A model generated the notes under the pieces. It was not told where the DNA came from, did not search any database, and saw only the letters and a program-made list of their open reading frames with translations. The position numbers were made by a program, and so were the translations under genes. Shown piece by piece: positions 32,291 to 57,101 of a DNA stretch of 64,000 nt. The stretch is from Picocystis sp. L7 (Eukaryota; Chlorophyta; Picocystophyceae; Picocystales; Picocystaceae), in the NCBI GenBank assembly GCA_020975725.1, contig QXJR01000005.1, positions 310,001 through 374,000 on the forward strand. The letters run 5' to 3'. Position 1 is the stretch's first letter. Every line of letters starts with the position of its first letter.

Positions 32291-32298
32291 TTAGACAG

Positions 32299-33027
32299 TG
32301 TTGCAAAAGCGTCCGTGAGTTTTGGACACTCACACACGTGCCTTGGAGGAGAGCGTGTGACGGGAAGGAGCCGGTGCACCGGTCTTGGGCGAGGGTCCTC
32401 GCACTCGCGGACAAAGCTCCCTTCTAGCCGGCTCGAGGCGTGGTGCCTAGCGAGGTCGACCTCCCGGTGGTTGGGCAAGCGCGTAGGCCTCAGCAAGTCG
32501 TCGAGAGAGGACGGAAGGAGGCGCGCTGGTGGTTGGCAAAGTCAAATTCTATCTCAAAGCAAAGAGGGACGATAGGTCTACCTCTCTCACCGCCTCTCAC
32601 TGGCGGTTGGAATTGGAGCAAAGGGGGTGTCTTATCCGCCTTCGTCCTCCTCTAAGTCACACCTGACCGTCCATTTTGCTCGCCCCGGGGCGACTGTGAG
32701 CTGTCACTTGCTGGACACCGTTCAGCCCCCTCAGGCCCACCCCTCACAATTGTGGATTGGGACGGGGTCGGCGGGTTCCCTTCGGTCTGTCTCGATCAAA
32801 GTCCCCGGCTCTCCTTACAGGAAGCCCGTTCTGATCGGGGGCGACCGTGCTTCAATGCGACCGGGGGAAACTGGTTCTGGTTCCGGAACGGTACTGTCGT
32901 TGTATTCCAAAGGGATATCATATCCCTTACTCGATGGGTAGCCTCGATGGTTCGGACCCGTAAGCCAGGGTCTCGACGGACCCTGGTGGGCCTCGTTCAC
33001 AGGAGGAGGCCAGTGCCTTATGCAACA
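32299..33027 (-). repeat. Array B LTR 1
   Basis: 729 bp bounded by the inverted ends TGTTGCA and TGCAACA. It joins the integrase end of unit 2 to the gag of unit 1. Two differences from LTR 2 were noticed (near 32862 and 32962). Confidence 0.9.
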
Positions 33028-33055
33028 CTCTCCCGGCTCCCTGGGACGAACCCGG

Positions 33056-36000: not shown

Positions 36001-39000
36001 TAATTTCTCAATCCATCGCATCTCGCGCGGAGACAACTGCTCTGTAGACTTGGTGTTGAGGAAATGGCTGGCTTTGTTATCCATAAGTACGGTGAAGTGC
36101 TGACCAAACAACAAGTGCCTCCAATGCTGCAGAGCATACAGGATGGCACAGGTTTCCTTCTCTGCTGGATGATAATTCTGTTGGGCTTGATTCAGCTTCT
36201 TTGACCAATATTCAACTGGGTGCCACTCCCCTTGCTCATCCTCCTGCATCGGAACTGCTCCCATGCCGATATCCGAAGCATCCGTCTCGACCCGGATCGG
36301 TCAGTCCTCATCGAAGAGTGCCAGGACAGGTGCGTTCGTGAGTGTTGCAAGCAGCTTGTTATAAGCTTCTTCTTGTGGGCCTTTCCAGTAGGATGTGAAC
36401 CCATGTTTCATCGATGCCTAGTTCAACTCAGTCAATGGGGCTGTAAGTTCCGCATAATGCGGAACGAACCGCATATAGAATTGGCAAAGCACAAGGAAGG
36501 CCATATTATCGCGTTGCGACTGCGGTCGCGGGAACTGCTGGATCTTGGTAAGTAGGTGGTTGGTACAGGCCAACTGTCCATTACGTATCGGAAAGCCTAC
36601 CTACTCCAAAGTACTTCCGAAAAAGTGACAGTTTGATCGTTGTAGCCGGATGTCGGCCTGTTCGCAGGTAGCGAATAATTCCTCAAGGTGTTGGAAATGC
36701 TGTTCTTTTGTTTCAGAATGCACCAATATGTCATCCATGTACACCTTTAAGTAGAGCAGGTGACCAAATATTCTGTTCATCATGCGCTGAAACATCGCAG
36801 GTGCGTTGGCAGCACCCATGGGCATGACCTTCCACACATAGGATCCAAAGGGTGTGACCACTGCAGTTTTATCGATGTCGGCAGGATCCTTCCTAACCTG
36901 GTGGAACCCATCCAAAGCATCCAGCGAGGAAAAGTATTTCGCACCTCTCAAGTTCTGCAGGTAGTAATCTATACGGGGCAGCGGATATCTATCCTTGAGA
37001 GTAACATTGTTAAGCAGGCGGTAGTCAAACACGACCCGCCAGCCCCCGTCTTTCTTCGGTACTAGGATTACTGGGGCTCCCCAGCTGGAGCCAGCACAAA
37101 GGTCCATTTTACCAGCATCGACGTATTCACTGATTAACTCCTTCAAGGCAGCCTGCTGGTGAGGGGATAGCCGATAATAATTCCTGTACTGCGGGGTCGC
37201 ATTTTCAGTGAGCTGTATTTTGAAGGCCTCTCCGCTGACACGCTCTGGCGGTAGCTGCGTAAGAGGCTCAAATAAGCCCTTATATCGGTGGTTGATCAGT
37301 CGGTCCAACCGGTACTGATCGCTGTGGTCCAGCTCCCATTCATCGCTGACTTTTGTCCGCATGTGGTCAAGGTGTGCTTCTTCATCGATAATTTCTGGTC
37401 TGGGATCCAGAGGCTGTATCATAAGCAATAGACAGCCTGGGTCCTGTACCGCCTTCCGAGCTTTGCATATGGGGAGAATAAGTCCAACTTTGTGGATGCG
37501 ATGAACTGGTGGTCTCCATACATAGTGTGCTTCATGCCACCGTTGTTCTTTAAGACCATCCGGTGGTTCTGCTAGTCTAGGACCATCAGGTGTTTGTCAC
37601 AGAAGGTCCCCACTAATATGCAATCAAATGTCTCCAGTGGTGCAACTGCGAAGGGCACCTGGCCACGGAAGCCATCGATCGTAAAGGTGGCCTGAACTAC
37701 TGGGGCTGTATGAACCTGCTGGCCTACACCTACTGTGAATTGCATAGTATCACCAGTGTTCTTCCAGGTCACCCCAAATGGGTTGGTTGATTGTAATTCA
37801 TGAATTAACTTCTCGCTGATGAATAAGTAGCTCGCTAATGTATCCAAATAGGCCTGTGTCCTAATCTTGTTTGCTTCCATTTCAAAGAAAGTTTCTGCAG
37901 GTAGGAATTCCCGCCTAGGCCTTACATTACTCAATGAGTTCAGGCAGACAAGAGTCCTTTCATTGTTAACCAGAGCTGCTGCTGGACTCGCTCCTGACTC
38001 CGCTCCGGTAGTTTGGGTCACTAGGCGGAGTGTACTCATTTTTTGGGGGCACAAATCACAAATGCCATTTTGCACGAGGGCTGATCGTGACCGCATCGGC
38101 GGTAGCGTCGACATAGCCCATGTACGAGGCACATATTCTTCTCTTCCTGTGACAGCTTGGCTCCAAGCGGTTTGTTCGATAGCTGAGTCTCCACTTTTAT
38201 GATGGCACTTTTCTGTCCATCATCGAGATCGTCGAATCGCTTTCGCTCTCTTTTCGCGAAACTGTTGTCTTGGTATTTTTCTTCCGTGGCGTTGGCATTG
38301 CAGCCGCTACTGGCTTTCGCGTGGGTCCCAAATCGGGACGTTGCTCGCTATTGCGACGGGTTGTAACGTAGTGATTCTTCCATTGTCCATGAGTTGTCTT
38401 GGTCTCTTTGCGGGGCTTTTCAGCAACTTCCTTTTCTAGCTTGAATATGACCGATGCCAAGTTTTCAGATTCCATAATCCGAACTTTATCCACATCAATC
38501 AAATGATCTTGGTGTTTATATGACGCTTGCTGGAGGTTGGCTGGCAGCACATGCCGGAGTCTTGCTTATAAATCGACTTCCGTTAAACTGCGGCACACAG
38601 GAGATGAGCTTGTGTTGGCGACAAATGTCAATTGCACTAGCCGGTTCAAAAACTGTAAAGCATTTTCGCCCCGGCGCATACGAGTAGTATGGAATTTGCG
38701 CTATGCTTCAGGGCCTGGGTCTTGATTCTGGAACGTACGGCGGAGGTAAGCGTACAATTCTTCCACCGATTTGAGGGCACCTCGATCGCGCATAACGAGA
38801 TTCTGCACCATTGATTTTGCTGTGCCTCCCAAAGCTTGACTGATCGCAAGTACCAACTGCTCCTTTGGACGGTCGAGAGCGTACGTTTGGCACCAACACA
38901 AACCATTGCGATACCAGTAAGTTAACGCATATGGATATTCATCAAGCTCCAGTCCAGTGAATTTTCCAGGCTTCTCTAGGGAAACCTTTTGAATATTCTT

Positions 39001-39276
39001 TGAGTCCTGGAGGGCTGTTCCATACAATGTGGTGAGATGAGGAAGTCCCTCTTCCTCGGAGGGCGCATGCGTCCCTCCTACGGTTGTCACTTGCTGATTT
39101 TCTTGGTTCTCATCGGTGATATTTTGTTCTTCGCCATCAGTTGGGTTTGTTTGCAAGGCTTCAAGCTGACCTTCGAGCTCAGCAATGCGCTCTTGGAGCG
39201 TGCTTCGCATGGCTCGTTCTTCTTCCAAGTCCCTACGGAGCGAACCCATTCGAGTTGTGTGCTCCGGATCTTCCAT
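33056..39276 (-). other. Array B unit 2: complete set of gag and pol parts
   Basis: Parts on the minus strand, approximate: gag 38200-39276, protease 37570-38050, reverse transcriptase 36600-37430 (VILVPKKDGGWRVVFDYR, KVYMDDILVHS), RNase H 35930-36320, DNA methyltransferase 34990-35910, integrase 34000-34760 ([47 protein letters not shown]), and C-terminal module 33056-33900 ending in [21 protein letters not shown]. The product order is the same as in gypsy C. A dead copy. Confidence 0.9.
34990..35910 (-). other. C5-cytosine DNA methyltransferase domain, array B unit 2
   Basis: The same module as in gypsy A and C: GTTLRALEIALP (end of motif I), DYIAVERDPDC, LIAGVPCQPFSRANTD (IV), ILECTPFATHL (VI), QARTRLCWTSL (VIII), LSVNERERLVGMQPGD (IX) and RQRMCGNAFPVGWIA (X). 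The amino acids around each motif are kept although the element is dead, so decay is recent compared with the divergence of A, B and C. Confidence 0.9.
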
Positions 39277-39322
39277 TTACTTGAACGTACGGCAGTCTTC
39301 TCTCAAGTACAAGCTTAGACAG

Positions 39323-40051
39323 TGTTGCAAAAGCGTCCGTGAGTTTTGGACACTCACACACGTGCCTTGGAGGAGAGCGTGTGACGGGAAGGAGCCGGTG
39401 CACCGGTCTTGGGCGAGGGTCCTCGCACTCGCGGACAAAGCTCCCTTCTAGCCGGCTCGAGGCGTGGTGCCTAGCGAGGTCGACCTCCCGGTGGTTGGGC
39501 AAGCGCGTAGGCCTCAGCAAGTCGTCGAGAGAGGACGGAAGGAGGCGCGCTGGTGGTTGGCAAAGTCAAATTCTATCTCAAAGCAAAGAGGGACGATAGG
39601 TCTACCTCTCTCACCGCCTCTCACTGGCGGTTGGAATTGGAGCAAAGGGGGTGTCTTATCCGCCTTCGTCCTCCTCTAAGTCACACCTGACCGTCCATTT
39701 TGCTCGCCCCGGGGCGACTGTGAGCTGTCACTTGCTGGACACCGTTCAGCCCCCTCAGGCCCACCCCTCACAATTGTGGATTGGGACGGGGTCGGCGGGT
39801 TCCCTTCGGTCTGTCTCGATCAAAGTCCCCGGCTCTCCTTACAGGAAGCCCGTTCTGATCGGGGGCGACCGTGCTTCAATGCGACCCGGGGAAACTGGTT
39901 CTGGTTCCGGAACGGTACTGTCGTTGTATTCCAAAGGGATATCATATCCCTTACTCGATGGGTAGCCTCGATGGTTCGGACCCCTAAGCCAGGGTCTCGA
40001 CGGACCCTGGTGGGCCTCGTTCACAGGAGGAGGCCAGTGCCTTATGCAACA
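39323..40051 (-). repeat. Array B LTR 2
   Basis: 729 bp, the 7024-bp-shifted copy of 32299-33027, between unit 3 (right) and unit 2 (left). Confidence 0.9.
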
Positions 40052-40079
40052 CTCTCCCGGCTCCCTGGGACGAACCCGG

Positions 40080-43000
40080 CTATACCTGAAAGTCATAGAT
40101 GTATGCTATGGGGTCATACAACATTGATCTGATCTGGTCTGCAAGATAGTAGTCTTTCTTGCCATCTGTCCATAGCACCTCAAAGAGCCCATTGTCTTCA
40201 TCTGTCACCAACCCCTGATAATAAGCTGACTTGTCCTGCCCCTCATGGAAAAGCTCATGCACAACTGCGCCGGTTAGGTCGGTCCGTTGCGGCTTGCGTG
40301 GCCGCTGTTTGGTCTGAAAAGGTAGCTTAGTGAATGGCCAGGTGTTGATCATAATTGGGCTGGGTGACTGCAGGTAGGTAGTTTTCTTATGCGTCTGAAC
40401 TGCTTCATAGTTAGCATCTGTGATACCCTGTTCTAGAATACACCCATTGTGTTCTTCCAGTGGTAAAAAATCATCCAACAAAGCTGCTGTTTCATCCACC
40501 CAGAAGTAGCGTTGCGAAGGATCTGAGAGATTGCTTTCCACCAAATAGCGTACTGGCCTCGCTGGGAACGCGGAGAAATCGCGCAGCAGGTAGCGTCGTA
40601 TGCGGTACAGCCTTGACTCGGTACGCATAGCATCTGTATCCGGCAGCGGGGACGCTTGCAGTTGTCGGTCTTCGTCCGTCGGATATAACGTGAGGTCTGA
40701 ATCTGTCCAGTGTTCAAGGCGATCAGCGTGGATTCGTTCTGAAAATGCAGAGCCAGGTGGTAAGTCCAGTTCGTAACAGCCGTTCCTCAGCGCCCGTTTA
40801 ATGACATAAGGGCCAACAAAGTATGGGTCGAGCTTATGTTTGTCAGCAGGCCCCTTAAGACCATATTGCACCTTCACCTTGTCCCCAGCTTCAAATGTTT
40901 TCTTCGGTCGATGCGCGGCAGCGGCAACCATGCGCTCTGCAGCTTTACGCAAATTGGCCTGGATAGTGTCGTAGACCGATCGGTGCTGTTTTAATAAACT
41001 GGTTACCCGGCGGTCGAATGTCGTTACGATGTCTGATTGATTAGTGCCCTCTACGGTTGGAATCTGCAAATGCCAGGGCAGTCTGGATGGACATCCAAAT
41101 AATAGCTGAAAGGGTGAGAAGTTAGTAGCTGTATGCACCGAATCGTTGTATGCGTGAGCTGCTGCTTGTAAGAACAGATCCCATTGGTGCTTATCAGAGC
41201 ATGTTGTTCTCAGCGTTTGCAGGAGCGTGCGATGCTGTCGCTCTGCTCCTCCCTGCGATTGAGAATGATATGGAGTGCCAGTAACATGGCGGACTCCCAA
41301 AGCTGCACAGAAAGCTTGAAACAACGATCGGTAGGCGGGCCCGTTGTCGGTATGTATATGAACTGGAGTGTGGTACTTGTACACCAGGTTATCCATTAAG
41401 CACTGAGCCTGACGATGCGCACTCCATGTGGAGTGGATCGGTATATAGATAGCCAACTTCGTGAAGCGGTCCACCACTGTCAAGACAGCATTATGGCCAA
41501 GAGCAGTGAGCGGTAGATTTTCAACCACATCTATCACAACAGTATGGAAAGGATATGGAAAGAACCTGAACTCTGGGCAAAGCTGACTGTGTCGGGACCG
41601 GTTACTGGGCTTCTGCAGTTGGCACACAGGGCAGCGTGCGACGAAGAGTTCGACGTGTCTCTTCAGGTCCTTCCACGTGAAGTGTCTTGAGGCATCTGCA
41701 TAAGTTCTCGCTGAACCAAAGTGTCGCTGATCATGAACCATGTGTAGCAGCTCCTGTTTGAGGCTATTGTCCGTAGGCACCACCAGTACTGGCTATGCAT
41801 TGTCACTGGTTGTAAAAAGAAGGTGGTTCTTGGCAATATGGTCTTCAGTTAGAGAATGAAGAAGCTCCTGGTAACTGGCATCATTGTCGGCAGCGGTGCG
41901 TATACGCTCCAGTAGAGTAGGTGGCTCCCCTTGCGTAGCGCAGAGCATTGAGCGCACCGATCGTGGCGTAGTAATTGACGCGATCGATCCACACACAGTC
42001 CCTGCTGGACTGCGGCATGCTAGCGGTCTAAGCGTCCGTGTGTGAATTTGCCAACGCAGCAGCATGTGGGCAATCCATCCAACTGGAAATGCATTACCAC
42101 ACATGCGCTGCCGGCTCGCATCGCTTACGTTCGCTGCAGCAGTATCACCAGGCTGCATCCCAACCAATCGCTCTCGTTCGTTAACGCTCAGCGGGCGAAG
42201 TTCGCCTCCTTCATCATGGACCCAGGTGGTTTTCGCACGATCGCTGTGCGACCGTGAGCTGGCCATCAAAGTTGGACATTTCAAGCGAGGTCGATTCAGA
42301 TCATCGCGTTGGACGGTTGCACCAGCATCCAAGCACTCCTGCCAGGTAAGAGGTATTGGTCCCATCGAGAGCTGAGGTTCCTGCAGGGGGGGTAGTGAGG
42401 TCCAGCATAACCTTGTACGAGCCTGCGCCCCATACTGTGACAGGTCCTCAACTACTGGGGATCCAAACCATTCAGCAATCGTGTCCAGGTGAGATTCCAG
42501 GTGAGTAGCAAATGGGGTGCACTCTAATATAAAGTCCGGACTGTTCAAGCGCTTGTGTATATTAGCAAGTGCAGTGAACAGCTCTCGTTGGTCAAACAGT
42601 CCCAGGGGAGGTTTGCCTTGGTCTGTGTTCGCTCGCGAAAAGGGCTGGCAGGGTACTCCTGCTATAAGTAAGTGTACCTTGGGGAGTTTTCGCCGCTGCC
42701 CTAATATGGTCACATCATTGCCGTAACGGAATATGTCTTTACGCGTAAACAGCCCTGGACGGGCGAGTCGTACTTGATTGAACACCCTCTGTATGACGCT
42801 GCGGCAATCTGGGTCCCTTTCGACGGCAATGTAATCGATCGTAATATCTGTGGATGGAGGCAGAGCAATTTCCAAAGCGCGTAGCGTTGTACCCATACCA
42901 GCACACAGATCAGTATGCAGTAGACTGATCCATTGTCCACCTTAGCCGAATGGCGCGATGAGTAGTCTGCCCCAGTATTTTCTGATCCTAGTCTACACTC

Positions 43001-46000
43001 AACAATGAAGGGGGCAAAGTAGGCTAATTTCTCAATCCATCGCATCTCGCGCGGAGACAACTGCTCTGTAGACTTGGTGTTGAGGAAATGGCTGGCTTTG
43101 TTATCCATAAGTACGGTGAAGTGCTGACCAAACAACAAGTGCCTCCAATGCTGCAGAGCATACAGGATGGCACAGGTTTCCTTCTCTGCTGGATGATAAT
43201 TCTGTTGGGCTTGATTCAGCTTCTTTGACCAATATTCAACTGGGTGCCACTCCCCTTGCTCATCCTCCTGCATCGGAACTGCTCCCATGCCGATATCCGA
43301 AGCATCCGTCTCGACCCGGATCGGTCAGTCCTCATCGAAGAGTGCCAGGACAGGTGCGTTCGTGAGTGTTGCAAGCAGCTTGTTATAAGCTTCTTCTTGT
43401 GGGCCTTTCCAGTAGGATGTGAACCCATGTTTCATCGATGCCTAGTTCAACTCAGTCAATGGGGCTGTAAGTTCCGCATAATGCGGAACGAACCGCATAT
43501 AGAATTGGCAAAGCACAAGGAAGGCCATATTATCGCGTTGCGACTGCGGTCGCGGGAACTGCTGGATCTTGGTAAGTAGGTGGTTGGTACAGGCCAACTG
43601 TCCATTACGTATCGGAAAGCCTACCTACTCCAAAGTACTTCCGAAAAAGTGACAGTTTGATCGTTGTAGCCGGATGTCGGCCTGTTCGCAGGTAGCGAAT
43701 AATTCCTCAAGGTGTTGGAAATGCTGTTCTTTTGTTTCAGAATGCACCAATATGTCATCCATGTACACCTTTAAGTAGAGCAGGTGACCAAATATTCTGT
43801 TCATCATGCGCTGAAACATCGCAGGTGCGTTGGCAGCACCCATGGGCATGACCTTCCACACATAGGATCCAAAGGGTGTGACCACTGCAGTTTTATCGAT
43901 GTCGGCAGGATCCTTCCTAACCTGGTGGAACCCATCCAAAGCATCCAGCGAGGAAAAGTATTTCGCACCTCTCAAGTTCTGCAGGTAGTAATCTATACGG
44001 GGCAGCGGATATCTATCCTTGAGAGTAACATTGTTAAGCAGGCGGTAGTCAAACACGACCCGCCAGCCCCCGTCTTTCTTCGGTACTAGGATTACTGGGG
44101 CTCCCCAGCTGGAGCCAGCACAAAGGTCCATTTTACCAGCATCGACGTATTCACTGATTAACTCCTTCAAGGCAGCCTGCTGGTGAGGGGATAGCCGATA
44201 ATAATTCCTGTACTGCGGGGTCGCATTTTCAGTGAGCTGTATTTTGAAGGCCTCTCCGCTGACACGCTCTGGCGGTAGCTGCGTAAGAGGCTCAAATAAG
44301 CCCTTATATCGGTGGTTGATCAGTCGGTCCAACCGGTACTGATCGCTGTGGTCCAGCTCCCATTCATCGCTGACTTTTGTCCGCATGTGGTCAAGGTGTG
44401 CTTCTTCATCGATAATTTCTGGTCTGGGATCCAGAGGCTGTATCATAAGCAATAGACAGCCTGGGTCCTGTACCGCCTTCCGAGCTTTGCATATGGGGAG
44501 AATAAGTCCAACTTTGTGGATGCGATGAACTGGTGGTCTCCATACATAGTGTGCTTCATGCCACCGTTGTTCTTTAAGACCATCCGGTGGTTCTGCTAGT
44601 CTAGGACCATCAGGTGTTTGTCACAGAAGGTCCCCACTAATATGCAATCAAATGTCTCCAGTGGTGCAACTGCGAAGGGCACCTGGCCACGGAAGCCATC
44701 GATCGTAAAGGTGGCCTGAACTACTGGGGCTGTATGAACCTGCTGGCCTACACCTACTGTGAATTGCATAGTATCACCAGTGTTCTTCCAGGTCACCCCA
44801 AATGGGTTGGTTGATTGTAATTCATGAATTAACTTCTCGCTGATGAATAAGTAGCTCGCTAATGTATCCAAATAGGCCTGTGTCCTAATCTTGTTTGCTT
44901 CCATTTCAAAGAAAGTTTCTGCAGGTAGGAATTCCCGCCTAGGCCTTACATTACTCAATGAGTTCAGGCAGACAAGAGTCCTTTCATTGTTAACCAGAGC
45001 TGCTGCTGGACTCGCTCCTGACTCCGCTCCGGTAGTTTGGGTCACTAGGCGGAGTGTACTCATTTTTTGGGGGCACAAATCACAAATGCCATTTTGCACG
45101 AGGGCTGATCGTGACCGCATCGGCGGTAGCGTCGACATAGCCCATGTACGAGGCACATATTCTTCTCTTCCTGTGACAGCTTGGCTCCAAGCGGTTTGTT
45201 CGATAGCTGAGTCTCCACTTTTATGATGGCACTTTTCTGTCCATCATCGAGATCGTCGAATCGCTTTCGCTCTCTTTTCGCGAAACTGTTGTCTTGGTAT
45301 TTTTCTTCCGTGGCGTTGGCATTGCAGCCGCTACTGGCTTTCGCGTGGGTCCCAAATCGGGACGTTGCTCGCTATTGCGACGGGTTGTAACGTAGTGATT
45401 CTTCCATTGTCCATGAGTTGTCTTGGTCTCTTTGCGGGGCTTTTCAGCAACTTCCTTTTCTAGCTTGAATATGACCGATGCCAAGTTTTCAGATTCCATA
45501 ATCCGAACTTTATCCACATCAATCAAATGATCTTGGTGTTTATATGACGCTTGCTGGAGGTTGGCTGGCAGCACATGCCGGAGTCTTGCTTATAAATCGA
45601 CTTCCGTTAAACTGCGGCACACAGGAGATGAGCTTGTGTTGGCGACAAATGTCAATTGCACTAGCCGGTTCAAAAACTGTAAAGCATTTTCGCCCCGGCG
45701 CATACGAGTAGTATGGAATTTGCGCTATGCTTCAGGGCCTGGGTCTTGATTCTGGAACGTACGGCGGAGGTAAGCGTACAATTCTTCCACCGATTTGAGG
45801 GCACCTCGATCGCGCATAACGAGATTCTGCACCATTGATTTTGCTGTGCCTCCCAAAGCTTGACTGATCGCAAGTACCAACTGCTCCTTTGGACGGTCGA
45901 GAGCGTACGTTTGGCACCAACACAAACCATTGCGATACCAGTAAGTTAACGCATATGGATATTCATCAAGCTCCAGTCCAGTGAATTTTCCAGGCTTCTC

Positions 46001-46299
46001 TAGGGAAACCTTTTGAATATTCTTTGAGTCTTGGAGGGCTGTCCCAAACAATGTGGTGAGATGGGGAAGTCCCTCTTCCTTGGAGGAAGCGTGTGTCCCT
46101 CCTAAGGCTATCACATGCAGATTTTCTTGAGCAAGCTCTATCTCGTTTTGTTCTTCACCATCAGTTGGGTTTGTTTGCAAGGCTTCAAGCTGACCTTCGA
46201 GCTCAGCGGTTCGTCCTTGGAAGGTGGTCCTCATGGACCGTTCTTCTTCCAAGTCTCTACGGAGCGAACTCATCCGAGTAGTGTGCTCAGGGTCCTCCA
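40080..46299 (-). other. Array B unit 3: complete set of gag and pol parts
   Basis: The same parts as unit 2 shifted by 7024: gag about 45220-46299, protease 44600-45080, reverse transcriptase 43625-44452, RNase H 42950-43340, methyltransferase 42010-42930, integrase 41020-41783, C-terminal module 40080-40920. Left of about 46030 it matches unit 2 almost base for base. Right of that point, in the gag N-terminus, it is a different variant (DLEEERSMRTTFQGRTAE instead of DLEEERAMRSTLQERIAE). A dead copy. Confidence 0.9.
42010..42930 (-). other. C5-cytosine DNA methyltransferase domain, array B unit 3
   Basis: Duplicate of the domain at 34990-35910 with the same motifs (PCQPFSRAN, ECTPFATHL, RTRLCWTSL, CGNAFPVGW). 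No difference was noticed by eye, so it gives no independent evidence of conservation. Confidence 0.9.
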
Positions 46300-46346
46300 T
46301 TTCCTTGAGGGTATGGCAGTCTCCTCTTAAGTACAAGCTTAGACAG

Positions 46347-47080
46347 TATTGCAAATGCGTCCGTGAGTGCAGAACGCTCACACACGTGCCTTGGAGGAAA
46401 GTGTGTTGACGGGGAAAGGGGGCGGTCCACCGGCTCTTGTTGAGGGTCTACTCACTTGCGGATGAGGTCCTCCTTTTGCCGACTCGAGGCTTGGTGCCTA
46501 GCGAGGTCGGTCTCCTAGTGGTTGGGCAAGCGCGTTGGCCTCAACAAGTCGTGAAGAGAGGACGGAGGGAGGCTCGCTTGTGTTAGGCAAAGTCAAGAAG
46601 TGTATCACAAAACAAATAGGGACGATAGGTCTAGCTCTCTCACCGCCTCTCACTAGTGGTTGGACTCGGAGCAAAGGGGATGTCTCAGCCGCCTTCGTCT
46701 TCCTTAGAGTCGACCCTGACCGTCCATTTTGCTCGCCCCGGGGCGACGATGAGCTCTCACTTGTTCGACACCGCTCAGCCCTTGAGTCCCATCCCTCACG
46801 ATCGTGGATAGGGACTGGGTCGGTTGGTTCCCTTCGGTCTGTCTCGATCAAAGTCCCTTGTTCCCCTTACAGGAAGCCCGTTCTGATCGGGGTGGCCGTG
46901 CTTCAATAGGACTCGGGGGAAGCTGGTTCTGATCCCGGAACAATACCACCGTTGTATCCCAAAGGGGTATCATATCCCTTACTCGGTGGGCAGCCCTATT
47001 GGTTCGGACCCGTAAGCCAGGGTCCCATATGGACCCAAACGAGCCTCGTTCACAGGAGGAGGCCACTGCCTTATGCAATA
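46347..47080 (-). repeat. Array B outer (5') LTR, diverged variant
   Basis: About 734 bp with perfect inverted ends TATTGC and GCAATA. It is clearly homologous to LTRs 1 and 2 but carries many substitutions and small indels (roughly 10-15% by eye), while LTRs 1 and 2 are nearly identical. It is therefore not the normal partner LTR of the inner ones. Confidence 0.85.
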
Positions 47081-48424: not shown

Positions 48425-48581
48425 TTATTTACCCTCCGAGAGAAGCGCCAAATGGGTCGAGCCTAGTAACACCGCTTTCAGAGTGTGCTTTGTCCATTCA
48501 AGAAATAGCTTTCCTCTAGGGTTAAGAGTGCTCATCCACACATCTAATGCTAGTTGTGGATCGAAAGGGTGATCAAGGGTG
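48425..48581 (-). pseudogene. Host SAM-dependent methyltransferase, 3' piece
   Basis: Last 50 codons plus stop of the host gene whose 5' piece is at 56418-57101. Reading starts directly after the left target duplication (48578-48581, CACC on the minus strand) and gives LDHPFDPQLALDVWMSTLNP, then RGKLFLEWTKH and a short tail. LDH.(F/Y)DP.LAL..WM..L.P.G.LF.EW is a typical run after the Rossmann acidic strand in a family of class I methyltransferases. It is separated from its 5' piece by the 7.8-kb gypsy C and so cannot be expressed as one normal exon. Confidence 0.82.
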
Positions 48582-49338
48582 TATTGCACAGCGTCCGTGG
48601 AGACACTGCCAATTCACACACGTTTTGGGCCTCAAGGCGGCCAAGATGCCAAGGGAAGAGGATGGAAACGCCTTGAAGGGCGCGTTTGTGGAGCGTCAGC
48701 CGTGTGGGACGGCTCCTGCTGACTTGTGCGAGTCTTGGCGGTGTTGAGAAGCCGCAGCAAGCTCGTGGTTGGTGGAGGCACGCACTTGAGAAGTCGTCAA
48801 GGCAAAAGTCTATTTTCAAGTCAAGTGAGGGGGGCCTCTAGTAGGCCCTCAAACCAGCAGCGGTTCAGGGTGGTACCCTTATCTCCATGGGGCGCCTGGT
48901 GGTCACGTGGCCCTGTCGCCCTCATCGGACGGTTGCACGACAGGCAAGCACGTGACCCAGATCCCCAGGGTGCTTCCCCACCCTTCGATCGACCTCGGGA
49001 GATTCGGGGGGATCCGGTCCCCCCTTCTGCCCGAGTCTCCTAGGGTTGCCCCGAACTGAGCCTGGGCTTCATCGGGTTCGCCCTGGGTCTATCCGGACGG
49101 CTGGTATTGGGGAGATCCCTCGTACCCTCGGACCGGGGTACCAAGGGCTTCCCATCCCCCGCCTTCCCAGGTCCTGAGTCGCACTCGTCCAGTTGGGGAG
49201 GGGTTACCCGTCCTGTACCTGACTTGATATCCAGCGATTCACAGCAAGCTCCAAGCTCGCTTATCTAGGCTACTGCTTGACAAGGATCTTTGTCAAGCAC
49301 CGGTTCCCATCGTAGGGGGGATCCTGCCCTGTGCAACA
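48582..49338 (-). repeat. Gypsy C 3' LTR
   Basis: 757 bp. On the minus strand it starts TGTTGCACAGGG and ends CTGTGCAATA, so it has TG...TA ends with a 10-bp near-perfect terminal inverted repeat. Confidence 0.93.
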
Positions 49339-49365
49339 CTCTCCCGGTTCCCGGCGAATGCCGCA

Positions 49366-52300
49366 TCATAGTTGGAAGTCATATACGTATGCGACGGGGT
49401 CATAGACCATGGCTCGTACTTGCTCTCCCAGGTAGTAGTCAATCTTACCGTCAGTCCATATGATTTTGTGTAGCCCGTCTTCAATGCTGTCAACCAAGCC
49501 TTGGAAGTAGGCTGGATCCGATCGATCGGGTGTATGAAAGAGTTCCTGAACCACTTGTCCTGCCAACTCGGTGGGTACGATAAATCTGGGGCGGCGCCGA
49601 GTCTGGAACGGCAATTTGGTGAAGGTCCAGGTGTTGACCATGATGGGACTGGGTGATTGAAGGTAAGCTGTCTTCTTGTGTGTGAACACAGCATTGTAGT
49701 TGCTGGGGGTAATTCCTTGTTCAGGTATGCATCCATTGGCTTCCTCCAGTAGCAGAAACTCTTCGAGCAAGGCTGCAGTTTCGTCGATCCAAAAGAAGCG
49801 TTGCGATGAATCAGTCAGGGAGCTTTCGACCCAGTACCGCACCGGTTGTGTGGGAAAGGTTGCGTAGTCGCGCAGCAGAAAACGGCGGATGCGATACGTT
49901 GCAGAATTGGTCTGCATATCCAATGTATCCGGCAACGGTGCACGGGCAGGCTGTAGATGTTCATCCATGGGGAACAAGGTGAGGTCTGAATCCACCCAAG
50001 GTTCAATGCGGTCAGCGTGAATGCGATCAGAAAACGCCGATCCAGGTGGTAAGTCCAACTGATAAGCACCATTTTGCAGAACTTTCTTGATTGTGTATGG
50101 CCCCACATAGTATGGATCTAATTTGTGTTTGTCAGTAGGACCTTTGAGTCCATACTGCACTTTTACCTTGTCTCCCTGTCGGAAGGATGTTGTCCGTCGC
50201 TTCGCAGTGGCCGCTTGCATGCGACGAGCGCCGTGAACCAGTTCCTGTAGGACGGCTTCGTAGACTCTGCGATGGCTGTCCAGCAGGTCTGATATGCGCG
50301 TATCGAAGCTGTCTACTGTAAGATCTGTAGCAGTAGCACCTATAGTAGGAAGCTGCAAGTGCCAAGGTAGCCTGGATGAACATCCAAAAAGCAATGCAAA
50401 GGGAGAATGCTTGGTTACTGAATGCACGGAGTCATTATAAGCGTGTGCTGCTGCCTGAAGGTATGCGTCCCATTGATGTTTATCATTACAGGTTGTACGT
50501 AAAGTTTGGAGTAGCGTGCGATGCTGACGCTCGGCTCCTCCCTGTGACTGAGAGTGATAAGGGGTACCTGTAACGTGACGGATGTTCAATGCAGCGCAGA
50601 ATGCCTTGAACAGCGCACGATAGGCAGGCCCATTGTCCGTATGGATGTGTACCGGTGTGTGATACCGATAAACCAGGTGATCCATCAGAAGCTGCGCTTG
50701 GCGATGTGCGCTCCAGGTTGAATGGATCGGCACATAAATCGCATACTTTGTAAATCGGTCGACAACCGTCAGGACAGCATTATGACCCTGAGCTGTGAGC
50801 GGTAGATTCTCGACCATGTCCATTACTACCGTATGGAACAGGTATGGGTGAAATTGTAGTTCTGGACATAACGAAGAATGTCGCGAACGATTCCCAGGTT
50901 TTTGGAGCTGGCAAACAGGACACCGGGCGACAAAATGTTCAATGTGGGATTTCATGTTGTCCCATGTAAAGTGACGAACAGCGTCAGCATGTGTACGTGT
51001 CACGCCAAAGTGTCGTGGGTCATGGATCATGTGCAGCAATTCCTGCCTCACAGAGTTATCCGCCGGTATAACCAATGACCATTGTTTGTTCTCTGTTGGG
51101 GCAAATAAGAGTGAGTCTTGGACCTTGTACCCTGCAGGTGGCTGTTGTAAGATGTCCTGGTACGTGGAATCAGCTTGGGCAGCATGGCGAATACGCTCCA
51201 GGATGGAGGGCGAGTCAACTGAAGTAGAATGTAGTGAGGACTGCGTTGGCTGTGGAGTTGTGATAGACGCGATAGAGCCACACACAGTCCCAGCAGGACT
51301 GCGGCTAGCTAGCGGTCGAAGCGTCCGTGTGTGGTTCAGCCATTGAGACACCATGTGAGCAATCCATCCTACAGGGAAGGCGTTGCCGCACATACGTCGC
51401 CGACTGGCATCACTGACATTCTTTGCAGCAGTGTCACCAGTCTGCATGCCAACGAGACGTTCACGTTCGCCGGTAGACAGCGGGCAAGGTTTCCCGTCGG
51501 TTCCGCGTACCCAGGTAGAGCGCAGTCGGTCGCTGTGGGACCGTGCGCTAGCCATCAGCGTTCGGCATTTGGTGCGGGGCTGATGTATTGCGTCCAGGGG
51601 TACTCGCGCCCCATCATCCAGGCAGTCTTGCCAAGTAACGGGAAGCGGGGCGAGGTCCAGCGCATTTCCTCGTTGACTTGGGAAAGAAGTCCAGCACAAT
51701 CGTGTGCGTGCTTGGGCACTGTAGTGGGACATGTCTTCCAGCATTGGCTCACCAAACCAATCGGTGATCTGTTCCAGATGAGGTTGTAGGTGAGCAGCAA
51801 AGGGGGTGCATTCCAGCACATAATCTGGATGCCCCAGCTTGTTGTGTAGTTGGGCCACGGCAGTAAAGAGTTCGCGCGTGTCGTACAGACCCAATGAAGG
51901 TTTTGATGCATTGGTGTTGGCCTTGGAGAAGGGCTGACACGGCACGCCAGCGACCATGAGATGCACTTGGGGCAGTTTTCTTCTGTGCACCAGAGTTTTG
52001 ACGTCATTCCCGTAGCGGAAAATATCCTTCCTCGTAAACAGGCCGGGCCTGGAAAGGCGAACGTGGTGGAACACACGGGATATTACGCTACGACAGTCCG
52101 GATCGGATTCAACTGCAATGTAATCCAGTACCACGTCAGATGTGGTAGGAATGATGAGCTCCAATGCCCGCAGTGTGGTTCCCATGCCAGCACAAAGATC
52201 GAGGATACAAAGGGTGTTTGCATCCTTTACTTTTGCTGAGTGCCGTGACAAATAGTCCGGGCCGATGTTTTCTGATCCAGGCCTGTATTCAATCGTAAAG

Positions 52301-54351
52301 GGTGCAAAGTAAGCAAGCTTTTCGATCCAGCGCATTTCTCGTGGCGATAGCTGTTCGGTAGCTTTGCTACCCAAGAACTGGCTGGCTTTGTTGTCCGTTA
52401 GCACGGTAAACTGCTGACCAAAGAGGAGATGCCGCCAGTGCTGCAGTGCGTACAGTATGGCGCACGTCTCCTTCTCAGCAGGGTGATAATTCTGCTGAGC
52501 GGTGTTGAATTTCTTCGACCAGTATTCTACGGGGCGCCAATCACCATTACAAGCCTGTTGCACGAGGGCAGCACCCATGCCTATGTCGGAGGCGTCTGTT
52601 TCGATGCGAATGGATCGATCTTCATCGAAAAGAGCCAGAACTGGTGCGGACGTGAGAGCTTTGACCATGTTACGGAAAGCTTCTTCTTGGGGCTGTTTCC
52701 AGTATGAAGTGAAGGCATGCTTCAGCGATGCTTGATTTAATTCAGTAAGCGGTGCAGCGAGCTCAGCATAATGGGGCACAAAGCGCATGTAAAACTGGCA
52801 CAGCCCCAGAAAGGCCATGTTTTCTCGCTGGGTCTGCGGGCGTGCAAAGTGCTGGATCTTAGACACCAGGTGGGCTGTACAAGCCAACTGACCGTCGCGA
52901 ATGCGAAAGCCAACCCATTCCAAAGTGCTTCTGAAGAAGTGGCATTTCGATCGTTTGAGGCGGATATCGGCTTGTTCACAGGTTGCAAAGAACTCTTCCA
53001 GGTGTTGGAAGTGTTCCTGTTTTGTTTCCGAGTGAACGAGGATATCGTCCATGTACACCTTCAGAAATAGGAGGTGTCCGAATACTCTGTTCATCATGCG
53101 CTGGAACATTGCCGGGGCGTTGGCTGCTCCCATGGGCATGACTTTCCATACGTACGATCCGAATGGAGTTACCACAGCAGTTTTGTCGATGTCCGCTGGG
53201 TCCACGCGAATCTGGTGAAACCCGTCCAACGCATCCAAAGAGGAAAAATACTTTGCTCCGCGCAGGCTCTGCAAGTAATCATCAATACGGGGCAGAGGGT
53301 ATCTATCCTTAACCGTGACGCTGTTGAGCAAACGGTAGTCGAATACTACCCTCCAGCCACCCTCTTTCTTTGGTACCAGAATGACAGGAGCTCCCCAACT
53401 GGATCCTGCACACAGATTCATCTTTCCGGCGTCCACATATTCAGCAATCAGCTCCTTCAGGGCTGCCTGTTGATGTGGAGACAACCTGTAGTAGTTCCTG
53501 TACTGCGGGGTCGCCCCCTCTACCAGCTGTATTTTAAAGGCTTCTCCGGGTACACGCTCCGGTGGCGGTTCGACACGTGGTTCAAACAAATGCTTGTAGC
53601 GTACATTCAGGAGATCGTCCAGACGTGCCTGGTCTGTTTCGTCCAACGGACATTCATCGCTGACTTGACTTCGCATGTGGGTCAAGTCAGTCTCTTCCTC
53701 AACTAGTTCTTTGCTTGCATCCAGTGGTTGCATCATCAGCAATAGACAACCAGGATGTTTGACTGCTTGTCGGGCCTCGCTTCGAGGCACAATCAGGTCC
53801 AGTTTGCGAGAAGCGATGAACTGCTGATCGCCGTAGACAGTATGTTTTGTGCTGTTGCTATCGCGCAGGATCATCCGATGTTGGGGCCAGTCCAAGGCCT
53901 CCAGGTACTGGTGGCAAAAGTTTGCCCCCAATATGCAGTCAAAGGTTTCTAACGGAGCCACTCCGAACTCGATGCGAGTTCGGAACCCGTCGATTGAGAA
54001 TGCAGCCCTGATTACTGGGGCAGTGTGGACCTTCTGGCCTACAGCCACGCTGTAATCGTAGGACGCTGTTGTGCACTCCCATGACACCCCTTCTGGGTCG
54101 GCCTGTCGCAAACTATCGTACAAGCGCTCGCTGATGAATGAGTAGCTGGCCAGGGTGTCCAAATAAGCTTGAGTCCTAATTTTTTGTGATTTTTTTCCAA
54201 AGTAAGTTTCAGCAGCAAGGAACTCTCCCCTAGGTCTGTTGCTAGCAACAGAATTCAGGTTGATGCATTCCTTCAACTTGGTAACCGGGGCGGCTGCCTG
54301 TTGCGCTCCCGGCTCCGTCCCGCTGACCGAAGTATCGGGACGGAGAGCCAT
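49366..54351 (-). CDS. Gypsy C pol: protease-RT-RNase H-DNA methyltransferase-integrase-reader
   Basis: A 1661-residue polyprotein, approximate residues. Protease region 50-160 (AYLDTLASYSFIS). Reverse transcriptase 275-480 (VILVPKKEGGWRVVFDYR; catalytic KVYMDDILVH near 430). RNase H 580-705 (RIETDASDIGMGAAL, GPDYLSRHSAK). C5 DNA methyltransferase 708-1010. Integrase 1100-1330 (HFGVTRTHADAVRHF with [45 protein letters not shown]). GPY-type segment about 1400-1450 (LDPYYVGPYTIKKVL). C-terminal module 1480-1661 with RFFWIDETAALLEEF and a Tudor-like QGLVDSIEDGLHKIIWTDGK. The start ATG overlaps the gag stop. A -1 frameshift at AAAAAAC, as known for such elements, would instead give a Gag-Pol fusion. 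Confidence 0.95.
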   Translation of the reverse strand: MALRPDTSVSGTEPGAQQAAAPVTKLKECINLNSVASNRPRGEFLAAETYFGKKSQKIRTQAYLDTLASYSFISERLYDSLRQADPEGVSWECTTASYDYSVAVGQKVHTAPVIRAAFSIDGFRTRIEFGVAPLETFDCILGANFCHQYLEALDWPQHRMILRDSNSTKHTVYGDQQFIASRKLDLIVPRSEARQAVKHPGCLLLMMQPLDASKELVEEETDLTHMRSQVSDECPLDETDQARLDDLLNVRYKHLFEPRVEPPPERVPGEAFKIQLVEGATPQYRNYYRLSPHQQAALKELIAEYVDAGKMNLCAGSSWGAPVILVPKKEGGWRVVFDYRLLNSVTVKDRYPLPRIDDYLQSLRGAKYFSSLDALDGFHQIRVDPADIDKTAVVTPFGSYVWKVMPMGAANAPAMFQRMMNRVFGHLLFLKVYMDDILVHSETKQEHFQHLEEFFATCEQADIRLKRSKCHFFRSTLEWVGFRIRDGQLACTAHLVSKIQHFARPQTQRENMAFLGLCQFYMRFVPHYAELAAPLTELNQASLKHAFTSYWKQPQEEAFRNMVKALTSAPVLALFDEDRSIRIETDASDIGMGAALVQQACNGDWRPVEYWSKKFNTAQQNYHPAEKETCAILYALQHWRHLLFGQQFTVLTDNKASQFLGSKATEQLSPREMRWIEKLAYFAPFTIEYRPGSENIGPDYLSRHSAKVKDANTLCILDLCAGMGTTLRALELIIPTTSDVVLDYIAVESDPDCRSVISRVFHHVRLSRPGLFTRKDIFRYGNDVKTLVHRRKLPQVHLMVAGVPCQPFSKANTNASKPSLGLYDTRELFTAVAQLHNKLGHPDYVLECTPFAAHLQPHLEQITDWFGEPMLEDMSHYSAQARTRLCWTSFPSQRGNALDLAPLPVTWQDCLDDGARVPLDAIHQPRTKCRTLMASARSHSDRLRSTWVRGTDGKPCPLSTGERERLVGMQTGDTAAKNVSDASRRRMCGNAFPVGWIAHMVSQWLNHTRTLRPLASRSPAGTVCGSIASITTPQPTQSSLHSTSVDSPSILERIRHAAQADSTYQDILQQPPAGYKVQDSLLFAPTENKQWSLVIPADNSVRQELLHMIHDPRHFGVTRTHADAVRHFTWDNMKSHIEHFVARCPVCQLQKPGNRSRHSSLCPELQFHPYLFHTVVMDMVENLPLTAQGHNAVLTVVDRFTKYAIYVPIHSTWSAHRQAQLLMDHLVYRYHTPVHIHTDNGPAYRALFKAFCAALNIRHVTGTPYHSQSQGGAERQHRTLLQTLRTTCNDKHQWDAYLQAAAHAYNDSVHSVTKHSPFALLFGCSSRLPWHLQLPTIGATATDLTVDSFDTRISDLLDSHRRVYEAVLQELVHGARRMQAATAKRRTTSFRQGDKVKVQYGLKGPTDKHKLDPYYVGPYTIKKVLQNGAYQLDLPPGSAFSDRIHADRIEPWVDSDLTLFPMDEHLQPARAPLPDTLDMQTNSATYRIRRFLLRDYATFPTQPVRYWVESSLTDSSQRFFWIDETAALLEEFLLLEEANGCIPEQGITPSNYNAVFTHKKTAYLQSPSPIMVNTWTFTKLPFQTRRRPRFIVPTELAGQVVQELFHTPDRSDPAYFQGLVDSIEDGLHKIIWTDGKIDYYLGEQVRAMVYDPVAYVYDFQL
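51330..52225 (-). other. C5-cytosine DNA methyltransferase domain in gypsy C pol
   Basis: Residues about 708-1010 of pol. Motif I CILDLCAGMGTTLRALE (about 710-726), II DYIAVESDPDC, IV MVAGVPCQPFSKAN (catalytic Cys about 804), VI VLECTPFAAHL (about 843-853), VIII QARTRLCWTSF (about 880-890), IX LSTGERERLVGMQTGD and X RRRMCGNAFPVGWIA (about 984-998). It resembles Dcm/DNMT catalytic domains in motif order; motif VI has Glu-Cys where ENV is usual. A basic-looking recognition stretch (KCRTLMASARSHSDRLRSTW) lies between VIII and IX. All residues expected for catalysis are visible. Confidence 0.94.
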
Positions 54352-54360
54352 CAGTTTTTT
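54349..54360 (-). promoter_or_regulatory. Putative -1 frameshift heptamer and stop/start overlap at the gag-pol joint
   Basis: The minus strand reads CCA-AAA-AAC-TGA-TGG. A-AAA-AAC in the gag frame is a classic -1 slippery heptamer, pol is open in the -1 frame, and TGATG could also allow re-initiation. Gypsy A has the same layout at 13133-13142. No mRNA structure downstream was tested. Confidence 0.6.
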
Positions 54361-55619
54361 GGTGCTCCCATTACGATTGCCATTTTGCAGCCGGACTGGT
54401 CATGTCCGTAACGGCGGCATCGTTGGCACAGGGAATGAGCTAAGCATAAGTTCTGCTCCTCTTGGGTAAGCTTTGCTCCCAGTGCCTTGCCTCCGAGCTG
54501 TTGCTGAGCTTTTGTAATGGACTGCTTCTGTTCATCCGAGAGATCGTCAAAGCGTTTTCGCTGCCGCTTCGCTGCTGCCATTTCCTTTGACAAAGTGGGA
54601 GGCTGAGCCGGTAGGGCAGCTGCCACTCCACCTGTGGGTGTTGGGCCAGCATGCTGGGTGCCATGAGCCGTGCGTGAAGACGGCTTGCGGCTAATCCACT
54701 TGCCAGCAGCATCCTTGGTTTCCCTGCCATTCTGCTCATGCATATCTCGGTCCAGCTTGAATATCACAGCAGCCAAATTTCCAGGTTGCATATCTGGAAC
54801 CTTGTCAACCTCAATAAGGTGATTCAGGTGCTTGTACAAAGCTCGTTGGAGGGAGCTGGGAAGGCCATGTTGTAGCCTGGCCGCGATGTCATCTTCAGTC
54901 AGCGTACGGCAGAGCGGCGAATAGCTTGCATTGACTACAAAGCTCAACTGGACCAGCCGATTGAGAAACTGTATTGCAATCTCTGTTCGGCGCATCCGGG
55001 TAGTGTGGAACTCTCGCCACGCTTCCGGTCCAGGGTCATGACTCTGGAAAGTCCGCTTGAGGTACGCAAAAAGGTCATCAACTGATCGTAGCGAGTTGGC
55101 ATCGCGCATGATCAAGTTCTGGACCATGGCCTTTGCCGTACCCGCCAGTGTTTGGTTGATCGCAAGAACCAGTTGTTCCATGGGGCGATCGTAGGCATAT
55201 GCTTGACACCAACACAACACATCGCGGTACCAGTAGGGCAACGCGTATGGGTTGTCTTCGAGTTCTGTCCCTGAGAACTTTTCCGGTCGTTCGAGAGACA
55301 CTTTTTGCAAATTCTTGGAGTCCTAGAGCGCAGAACCGTAGAGGCTCGTAAGACGAGGCAGCCCCTCTTCTTCCAACGGTGTGTGGGATGGTACGGGCTA
55401 TTCTTCCGACGCCGATGGCTTGCCCTTTACTTCCGGGAGCGTAAGCCCATCATTTGGTGTCTTCAAATCATCAGGTGGGGAAGCTTGTTTGGCTTGTAGG
55501 AGCTCCTGGACCTCCGCTAACTTTTCTTCAAGTCCCTCCCTCCGAGACTTTTCCTCCTCGAGGTTCCGTTCGAGGGCTTCCCATCTTTCTTCGCGCCCTT
55601 CTTCGTCCAAGGACGACAT
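54351..55619 (-). other. Gypsy C gag region
   Basis: An N-terminal coiled coil (RWEALERNLEEEKSRREGLE, about 55520-55590) is followed by the capsid region (YALPYWYRDVLCWCQAYAYD; WREFHTTRMRRTEIAIQFLN), a basic Pro/Ala-rich segment and one CX2CX4HX4C zinc knuckle (CQRCRRYGHDQSGC). It ends Pro-Lys-Asn-stop on AAAAAAC (54354-54360), with the pol ATG overlapping the stop as TGATG. The design is the same as the gag of gypsy A and B. Confidence 0.85.
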
Positions 55620-55660
55620 CCCTCAGGCTTCTTAGCGTCGTTGAGCTTCCGCTTCGACAG

Positions 55661-56417
55661 TATTGCACAGCGTCCGTGGAGACACTGCCAATTCCCACAC
55701 GTTTTGGGCCTCAAGGCGGCCAAGATGCCAAGGGAAGAGGATGGAAACGCCTTGAAGGGCGCGTTTGTGGAGCGTCAGCCGTGTGGGACGGCTCCTGCTG
55801 ACTTGTGCGAGTCTTGGCGGTGTTGAGAAGCCGCAGCAAGCTCGTGGTTGGTGGAAGCACGCACTTGAGAAGTCGTCAAGGCAAAAGTCTATTTTCAAGT
55901 CAAGTGAGGAGGGCCTCTAGTAGGCCCTCAAACCAGCAGCGGTTCAGGGTGGTACCCTTATCTCCATGGGGCGCCTGGTGGTCACGTGGCCCTGTCGCCC
56001 TCATCGGACGGTTGCACGACAGGCAAGCACGTGACCCAGATCCCCAGGGTGCTTCCCCACCCTTCGATCGACCTCAGGAGATTCGGGGGGATCCGGTCCC
56101 CCCTTCTGCCCGAGTCTCCTAGGGTTGCCCCGAACTGAGCCTGGGCTTCATCGGGTTCGCCCTGGGTCTATCCGGACGGCTGGTATTGGGGAGATCCCTC
56201 GTACCCTCGGACCGGGGTACCAAGGGCTTCCCATCCCCCGCCTTCCCAGGTCCTGAGTCGCACTCGTCCAGTTGGGGAGGGGTTACCCGTCCTGTACCTG
56301 ACTTGATATCCAGCGATTCACAGCAAGCTCCAAGCTCGCTTATCTAAGCTACTGCTTGACAAGGATCTTTGTCAAGCACCGGGTCCCATCGTAGGGGGGA
56401 TCCTGCCCTGTGCAACA
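55661..56417 (-). repeat. Gypsy C 5' LTR
   Basis: 757 bp, same ends as 48582-49338. The sequence just inside (CTGTCGAAGC on the minus strand) resembles that of array B (CTGTCTAAGC) and does not start with the TGG of a usual tRNA primer site. Confidence 0.93.
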
Positions 56418-57101
56418 AGTGTTGGAATAGATAAAGTCAAAATGCCCCTCCCATTCAGGCTTCTTCAAATAATAGTCCCACTGGATTGTATGTTCAAACT
56501 TAGTTGCAGTATCGGAGATTTCTGTTCCAAAGACATTTGAGTTTGGTAAAAGATCTCTGAAGATGCGCTGCTCCAAACCTCTCCTTGTCCCATGAGAAAC
56601 GCCGCACACCACTCCCTCAACTTTCATTTCATTCTTCATCCACTTGGCAATTGCTTCGATGGTACCTGCATCCACAAAATGCTCAGCTATCTTTCGCTTG
56701 TTACCATCAGTTTGTGTGCTGACACATTCTTGGTAGTTGAACTTGGCCAGGGAAAGCGACCATGATGACAAAAACACGAACGCCATTATCAACTTTGACG
56801 ATATACGTATCCTGCTTCTGACATTGAACAATTTTGTGTTTAATCCATTGTGATTATATCCATTTGTAAAGTGATCCGTCGAAGGCCGTTTTGAGGCGAG
56901 CAACACCATGAGGGCTCGATCAGCACTAGATGCGAATTTTCTACGGGTAGTAGAAAGTGTCACGCGTGTGCGAAGATGCCTAACGGATGGCCGCTCCCTC
57001 CCCCTTTTGAGTGTCCTCACAACAAATTGGCGTTTATATTGATACACAGTGTTCGGGACACAACCTCTTCTCCGAATGACGAACGACGAGGGAAAGCACA
57101 A
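56418..57101 (-). pseudogene. Host SAM-dependent methyltransferase, 5' piece, interrupted by gypsy C
   Basis: A host gene of up to 278 codons (228 here, 50 at 48425-48577). The Rossmann SAM-binding loop is GVVCGVSHGTRRGLEQ (about 163-178), the acidic strand is VFGTEISDTA (about 190-199), and FDFIYSNT (221-228) is the strand before the insertion. A hydrophobic stretch (LIMAFVFLSSWSLSLA, about 104-119) suggests a signal anchor or signal peptide, so the true start may be M106 (56786) and the basic first 105 residues may not be translated. The substrate is unknown; such proteins in algae are often secretory-pathway enzymes (inference). The recent gypsy C insertion disrupts it; another allele or paralog may be intact. 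Confidence 0.82.

What the first reader, a model, noticed from the sequence alone, without database searches (positions are those of the whole stretch)
48582..56417. Whole-looking gypsy retrotransposon whose Pol contains a complete C5-cytosine DNA methyltransferase
The 1661-residue frame holds protease, RT, RNase H, a full methyltransferase (motifs I, II, IV, VI, VIII, IX, X) and integrase. LTRs are under 1% different, so the copy was recently mobile. A self-copying element that carries its own DNA-methylation writer could alter silencing of itself, its rivals or its host. I recall a report of methyltransferase capture by retrotransposons in dinoflagellates and a streptophyte alga, so novelty lies in lineage, placement and partners.
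Basis: partly seen in the sequence, partly recalled or inferred. Interest (0 to 1): 0.92.

Follow-up and report, generated by a model that had tools for sequence, protein, structure and literature searches.

The report
Retrotransposon family carrying DNA-methylating enzyme
In a small green alga, a large family of self-copying LTR retrotransposons carries, inside its replication polyprotein, a conserved DNMT3-like enzyme for methylating DNA; single cases were known from other algae, but here there are many copies, many with whole genes, and the enzyme module seems to have passed between element lineages.

The parts
55660..56417 (-). 5' LTR of element E1, 758 bp
   Evidence: direct repeat, 6 differences from the other LTR
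48581..49338 (-). 3' LTR of E1, 758 bp
48576..48580 (.). left flank AGGGT, half of an imperfect 5-bp target-site duplication
56418..56422 (.). right flank AGTGT, other half
54351..55310 (-). Gag-like ORF, 319 aa, with a CCHC knuckle CQRCRRYGHDQSGC
   Evidence: no Pfam family matched
54354..54360 (-). A AAA AAC heptamer directly before the Gag stop; Pol lies in the -1 frame (probable frameshift site)
   Evidence: that it is slippery is recalled; same arrangement in E3
49366..54351 (-). Pol ORF, 1661 aa, intact
53842..54219 (-). protease-like region (weak)
   Evidence: PF13650 E 0.12; span by a profile built from the relatives themselves
52672..53589 (-). reverse transcriptase
   Evidence: PF00078 1.6e-36; span
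52252..52659 (-). RNase H
   Evidence: PF17919, PF17917
51307..52230 (-). DNMT3-like C5-cytosine methyltransferase; Cys of PCQ at Pol residue 805 (51937-51939)
   Evidence: PF00145, fold, invariant motifs
50152..51189 (-). integrase (zinc-binding and catalytic core)
   Evidence: PF17921, PF00665
49339..49352 (-). polypurine tract GGGAACCGGGAGAG before the 3' LTR; 13 of 14 bases shared with E3
11416..18787 (+). E3: second MT-bearing Gypsy, LTRs 647 bp with 1 difference, 4-bp TSD ATCA, Pol broken by a stop near the end of MT
30123..47078 (-). E5: tandem repeat (period 7024) of a broken MT-bearing element; MT at 34958-35899 and 41982-42923
21318..30113 (+). E2: related Gypsy without PF00145; conserved segment 26805-27467 at the MT position

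Best explanation
What it is (about 0.93): a young Ty3/Gypsy LTR retrotransposon from a large, old family in a green alga, whose Pol carries a DNMT3-like C5-cytosine methyltransferase between RNase H and integrase. How it works (about 0.4, inferred): Pol is made as a Gag-Pol fusion by -1 frameshifting at A AAA AAC, so that the methyltransferase is packaged with reverse transcriptase, RNase H and integrase. It methylates the double-stranded cDNA in the particle or the pre-integration complex; the new copy enters the genome already carrying 5mC, which host MET1 can maintain. This either lets the incoming DNA pass as self or damps its own expression and keeps copy number tolerable. Shown: domain order, intact frames, catalytic residues, selection, spread in the genome. 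Inferred: frameshift, packaging, catalysis, substrate and benefit. The MT module (perhaps with RNase H) has probably passed between Gypsy clades by recombination.
Against: No activity, methylome or expression data. MT elements overlap host genes and E2 in CpG depletion once protein and codon use are held fixed (A 0.62-0.80, B 0.74-0.76, C 0.67-0.80, E2 0.75, seven host genes 0.67-1.07); of the 6 LTR differences only 1 is at a CpG. E2, a sister element without a recognisable MT, has spread to about 30 copies, so MT is not needed for mobility. The yeast test of KnitGypsy-Dnmt3 in PMC5890265 found no activity (called inconclusive there). Motif VI reads ECT where ENV is usual (recalled).
Confidence: 0.45

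Rival explanations
1. Trans-acting weapon or manipulator: the methyltransferase acts on other DNA, silencing rival elements, competing copies, host genes or DNA viruses.
For: Many copies with intact MT could give much enzyme. PMC6338049 (passages) proposes antiviral roles for retrotransposon methylases.
Against: No evidence of targets; MT is built into Pol between RNase H and integrase rather than made as a free protein; rival families such as E2 thrive (about 30 copies).
Confidence: 0.2
2. Non-catalytic role: the domain serves as a spacer, DNA-binding or integration-targeting part, as chromodomains do in other Gypsy elements.
For: E2 keeps a conserved segment (omega 0.17) at the same place without PF00145; no chromodomain was matched in E1 Pol.
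Against: Catalytic Cys and Glu invariant in 21 of 21 aligned Pols, PCQ in 26 of 27 rows of own-genome MT domains: more than binding needs.
Confidence: 0.15
3. RNA methylation: the enzyme acts on the element RNA, the primer tRNA or the RNA-DNA hybrid.
For: C5 enzymes of DNMT2 type act on tRNA (recalled); RNase H, which acts on hybrids, is the neighbouring domain.
Against: Sequence and fold are nearer DNMT3 than DNMT2.
Confidence: 0.08
4. Contaminant or assembly artefact: the element or domain does not belong to this genome.
Against: Clade A copies lie on 24 of 30 contigs, among them C1, C20 and C25 with the host DNMT genes and contigs with light-harvesting genes; purifying selection.
Confidence: 0.02

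Closest known systems
KnitGypsy-Dnmt3 of Klebsormidium nitens (de Mendoza et al. 2018, PMC5890265, parts 1-4 of 7 read)
   Same: LTR Gypsy domain set; DNMT3-type enzyme in the Pol polyprotein; several copies; purifying selection on the DNMT
   Different: There the repeats are arranged as in DIRS elements (figure legend); here plain flanking LTRs, more than 150 loci, three clades with probable module exchange, another green alga. No direct sequence comparison was possible, so shared ancestry of the two DNMTs is open
SymbioDIRS-Dnmt3 of Symbiodinium (same paper)
   Same: DNMT3-type domain in Pol; hundreds of DNMT loci of retrotransposons in one genus
   Different: DIRS element with tyrosine recombinase, dinoflagellate host; here Gypsy with rve integrase
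SymbioLINE-Dnmt of Symbiodinium (same paper)
   Same: Retrotransposon with a C5 DNMT
   Different: LINE, DNMT in ORF1, orphan DNMT class
DNMT3A/3B catalytic domain
   Different: Motif IV PCQPFS and motif VI ECT, against PCNDLS (alignment) and ENV (partly in that alignment, name recalled); no ADD or PWWP domain matched in Pol
Chromovirus-type Gypsy elements (recalled)
   Same: Gypsy Pol with an extra domain tied to chromatin or silencing
   Different: Chromodomain lies after the integrase (recalled) and none was matched here; here an enzyme before the integrase

Membership tests
Ty3/Gypsy LTR retrotransposon | flanking LTRs | tested here: met
   758 bp, 6 differences
Ty3/Gypsy LTR retrotransposon | Pol order RT - RNase H - integrase with rve core | tested here: met
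Ty3/Gypsy LTR retrotransposon | aspartic protease | tested here: inconclusive
   PF13650 E 0.12; DTL motif
Ty3/Gypsy LTR retrotransposon | target-site duplication and tRNA primer-binding site | tested here: inconclusive
   E1 TSD imperfect, E3 TSD perfect 4 bp; no TGG-type primer site seen
C5-cytosine methyltransferase | PF00145 above cut-off and motifs I, IV, VI, VIII, X | tested here: met
C5-cytosine methyltransferase | methylation activity | not testable with these tools
   needs an experiment
DNMT3 family | closest fold and sequence match to DNMT3 | tested here: met
DNMT3 family | grouping with eukaryotic DNMT3 in a tree | not tested
KnitGypsy-Dnmt3 | DNMT inside a Gypsy Pol | tested here: met
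KnitGypsy-Dnmt3 | DIRS-like repeat arrangement reported for it | tested here: not met
   one pair of direct flanking LTRs in 47500-57500, no inverted repeats found
KnitGypsy-Dnmt3 | DNMT sequence grouping with KnitGypsy | not tested
   KnitGypsy sequence not at hand; it did not appear by name or 47
SymbioDIRS-Dnmt3 | tyrosine recombinase in place of a DDE integrase | tested here: not met
   rve and H2C2 integrase domains found in Pol

The most novel reading that the evidence does not exclude
The methyltransferase is an exchangeable module that has moved between anciently separated Gypsy clades within green algae (clade C's MT comes from a clade A-like or P0017-like element), in a genome where the only DNMT3-like enzymes with unrearranged motif order that I found sit in retrotransposons. 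Repeated acquisition and long upkeep would mean that element-encoded de novo methylation is a selected strategy and not an accident, with E2 showing its later loss or replacement.
Probability: 0.45. Interest if true: 0.75.

Novelty: new variant of a known kind. Interest (0 to 1): 0.62.

Why it matters
Retrotransposons are usually the targets of DNA methylation. A compact genome with dozens of intact element-borne methyltransferases, a natural sister element that lacks the recognisable domain (E2), and three clades to compare makes it testable why an element should carry a methylation writer. It also extends the known cases to another green alga, and to whatever organisms the database relatives come from, and points to module exchange as a route of spread.

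Tried and rejected
Contamination or artefact: rejected, clade A copies lie on 24 of 30 contigs. Passenger domain: rejected by omega. Self-methylation footprint: raw CpG o/e first looked lower in MT elements (0.77-0.80) than in E2 (1.01), but with protein and codon use held fixed the groups overlap; dropped. Host gene as direct source: the host methyltransferases found are MET1, CMT (BAH + chromo), a PWWP type, DNMT2 and a DRM type with rearranged motifs; none is an unrearranged DNMT3, but one search scored only 123 of 177 candidates, so one could be missed. Viral source: 19 loci in viral contigs at 25-33% identity, none close. E2 segment as a decayed MT: hhalign E 3e-4 but probability 39, model pLDDT 37.7; inconclusive. 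Primer-binding site: the sequence after the 5' LTR (TGTCGAAGCGG) does not start with the recalled TGG; unresolved. Clade C inside clade A on MT: AU test not significant, p 0.40. RNase H as part of the exchanged block: A-C minus A-B +0.038, interval -0.041 to 0.118, not shown. Host species: the 18S search (RF01960) never returned a result, so the host rests on proteins.

Literature: nine searches; among the titles and abstracts listed I saw no report of such an element in a chlorophyte or in this family; only open-licence PMC papers are held, and most listed papers were not opened. PMC6338049 (passages) says loosely that DAM/DCM retrotransposons occur in green algae, citing work that I did not see. 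Passages only were also seen of PMC12344493, PMC9998398, PMC11244446, PMC12301720 and PMC12542154.

Full report

Expression. The Gag frame ends CCA AAA AAC TGA and Pol lies in the -1 frame; an ATG overlaps the stop (TGATG). Element E3 ends Gag with CCA AAA AAC TAG and also has Pol in -1, without such an ATG. A AAA AAC is a known -1 slippery heptamer (recalled). I infer a Gag-Pol fusion, so that the methyltransferase would be packaged; reinitiation at the ATG of E1 is not excluded.

Family. E1 is one of 9 copies of its subfamily at 94-100% MT identity, 5 of them with the full 1677-codon frame. Clade A has 122 scored matches (a lower bound: 194 candidates were seen, 122 scored). Of these 122, 55 sit in an open frame of at least 1660 aa without a stop, and 15 hold stops. 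Clade C has 21 matches at 67% or more (132 scored), clade B 9 loci at 75% or more (123 scored), and 2 loci are not in the list: 154 by my tally, a minimum. The window itself holds E1, E3, a tandem of broken copies (E5), and E2 without a recognisable MT. I fetched 26 stretches at PF00145 hits (20, 6); two of them proved to hold host genes instead (L009, L010). One search kept 27 rows of nearly complete MT domains in one frame, window copies included; two rows are second views of a domain in overlapping stretches (L011/L022). Broken domains were left out. PCQ is present in 26 of 27 rows, the motif VI pattern in 26 of 27, R-x-R in 27 of 27, and the GN motif in 22 of 27 by a narrow pattern. The six stretches were chosen for long open frames, so that six of six being intact is no estimate.

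Selection. With dS near 0.4-0.6, MT omega is 0.09-0.10 (clade A) and 0.14-0.15 (clade C); RT and INT of the same clade A pair give 0.02 and 0.06. Of the 45 pairs with all three domains only that pair was below the saturation limit used; over the 45 pairs raw pN/pS medians are RT 0.43, MT 0.45, INT 0.57. Pairs with dS under 0.16 give 0.21-0.70, as expected where dead copies are included.

Distribution. Clade A copies are on 24 contigs; 47 of 122 are on C3 and C4, 11.6% of the genome, but only 8 of those 47 are intact against 47 of 75 elsewhere. C3 and C4 look like places where old copies pile up.

Module exchange. Mean identity of clade A to clade C is RT 0.34, RH 0.43, MT 0.47, INT 0.30; to outgroup P0017 it is 0.48, 0.52, 0.48, 0.43; to clade B 0.40, 0.39, 0.35, 0.31. 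So clade C's MT is as close to clade A as P0017's is, while its RT and INT are far more distant. Path-length ratios MT/RT-RH are 1.93 within A, 2.45 within C, 1.79 A to B and 0.59 A to C; but they also fall where no exchange is proposed (A to P0017 1.30, A to P0019/20 1.01), so that saturation explains part. A column bootstrap gives A-C minus A-B +0.115 (0.069 to 0.159) for MT, -0.062 (-0.116 to -0.004) for RT, -0.010 (-0.048 to 0.029) for INT and +0.038 (-0.041 to 0.118) for RNase H. Exchange of MT is the simplest reading; whether RNase H went with it is not shown. Uneven rates are an alternative. On MT the AU test does not reject clade A as one clade, p 0.40.

Sister element E2. With P0019/P0020 as outgroup it groups with clade A by RT-RNase H (88/82) and integrase (97/96), inside the MT-bearing set, yet has no PF00145. 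A segment at the MT position, in about 30 copies (33 matches), is under purifying selection (omega 0.16-0.18 for the window copy against five others) and resembles the MT amino half only weakly. Its fold could not be predicted. Loss or replacement of MT is likely; decay from MT is unproven.

Relatives elsewhere. Twenty Pol proteins in a 5.8-billion-protein set match the domain; 18 of 20 bear PF00145 in the table, P0019 and P0020 do not but are hit by the domain and match PF00145 when their domain is scanned. P0018 ends before the integrase. Most have no name. P0001 is 91% identical over Pol, and the host MET1 has an 88% relative from the same type of source (P0086), so a sister species probably has the family. 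P0019 and P0020 (26-27% identity over Pol) have ENV in motif VI and may be an independent case. Viral contigs gave only distant enzymes.

Host. The host MET1 is 100% identical to a EukProt protein labelled Pavlova lutheri, but the other hits with an organism's name among the 120 listed of 816 are green algae or land plants, best Coccomyxa, Micractinium, Trebouxia and Picochlorum at 47-49%, and its LHCII matches green-type chains best apart from two LHCI chains of entry 9vfj. I take the host to be a green alga and the label to be a mix-up. It also has CMT, PWWP-type, DNMT2 and a DRM-type gene. Sarre et al. 2025 (PMC12344493, passages read) found DRM only in streptophytes, so the class of green alga is left open.

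Known work. De Mendoza et al. 2018 (PMC5890265; parts 1-4 of 7 of the text read) described KnitGypsy-Dnmt3, SymbioDIRS-Dnmt3 and SymbioLINE-Dnmt, their purifying selection, and CG methylation in yeast by SymbioDIRS enzymes. The present family shares the idea and differs in repeat structure, host, and apparent module exchange; KnitGypsy copy number is said there to be lower than in Symbiodinium. KnitGypsy appears in no other held paper.

Mechanism. I favour methylation of the element's own cDNA in the particle, kept by host MET1 (about 0.4). Trans action on other DNA (0.2), a non-catalytic role (0.15) and RNA methylation (0.08) remain. Sequence alone cannot decide, and the CpG tests did not help.

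Noticed in passing
window 26805-27467 (element E2): A segment of about 200 aa between RNase H and integrase, in about 30 copies, omega about 0.17, no Pfam family; weak likeness to the MT amino half.
   Followed up: partly
window 30123-47078: Tandem repeat with period 7024 of a broken MT-bearing retrotransposon.
   Followed up: partly
L064 1837-3042 minus (C20): Host DRM-type (motif-rearranged) methyltransferase, best PDB match DRM at 133.8 bits, beside CMT and PWWP-type genes; DRM was reported only from streptophytes (PMC12344493 passages).
   Followed up: partly
database proteins P0004, P0021, P0029, P0085: EukProt entries labelled Pavlova lutheri hold sequences of this green alga (MET1 100% identical, one MT piece 97%): the label is probably wrong or the culture mixed.
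   Followed up: partly
G000 contigs C3 and C4: Two contigs hold 47 of 122 clade A copies but only 8 of the 55 intact ones.
   Followed up: partly
window 57113-58177 plus: FkbM-type methyltransferase gene (PF05050) where G+C falls to about 0.44 right of 58 kb.
   Followed up: no
L009 1-1863 minus: Copia-type Gag/integrase ORF beside the host CMT gene.
   Followed up: no
window 5605-6256 and 8708-9358: Inverted repeat of about 650 bp at 98.8%.
   Followed up: no
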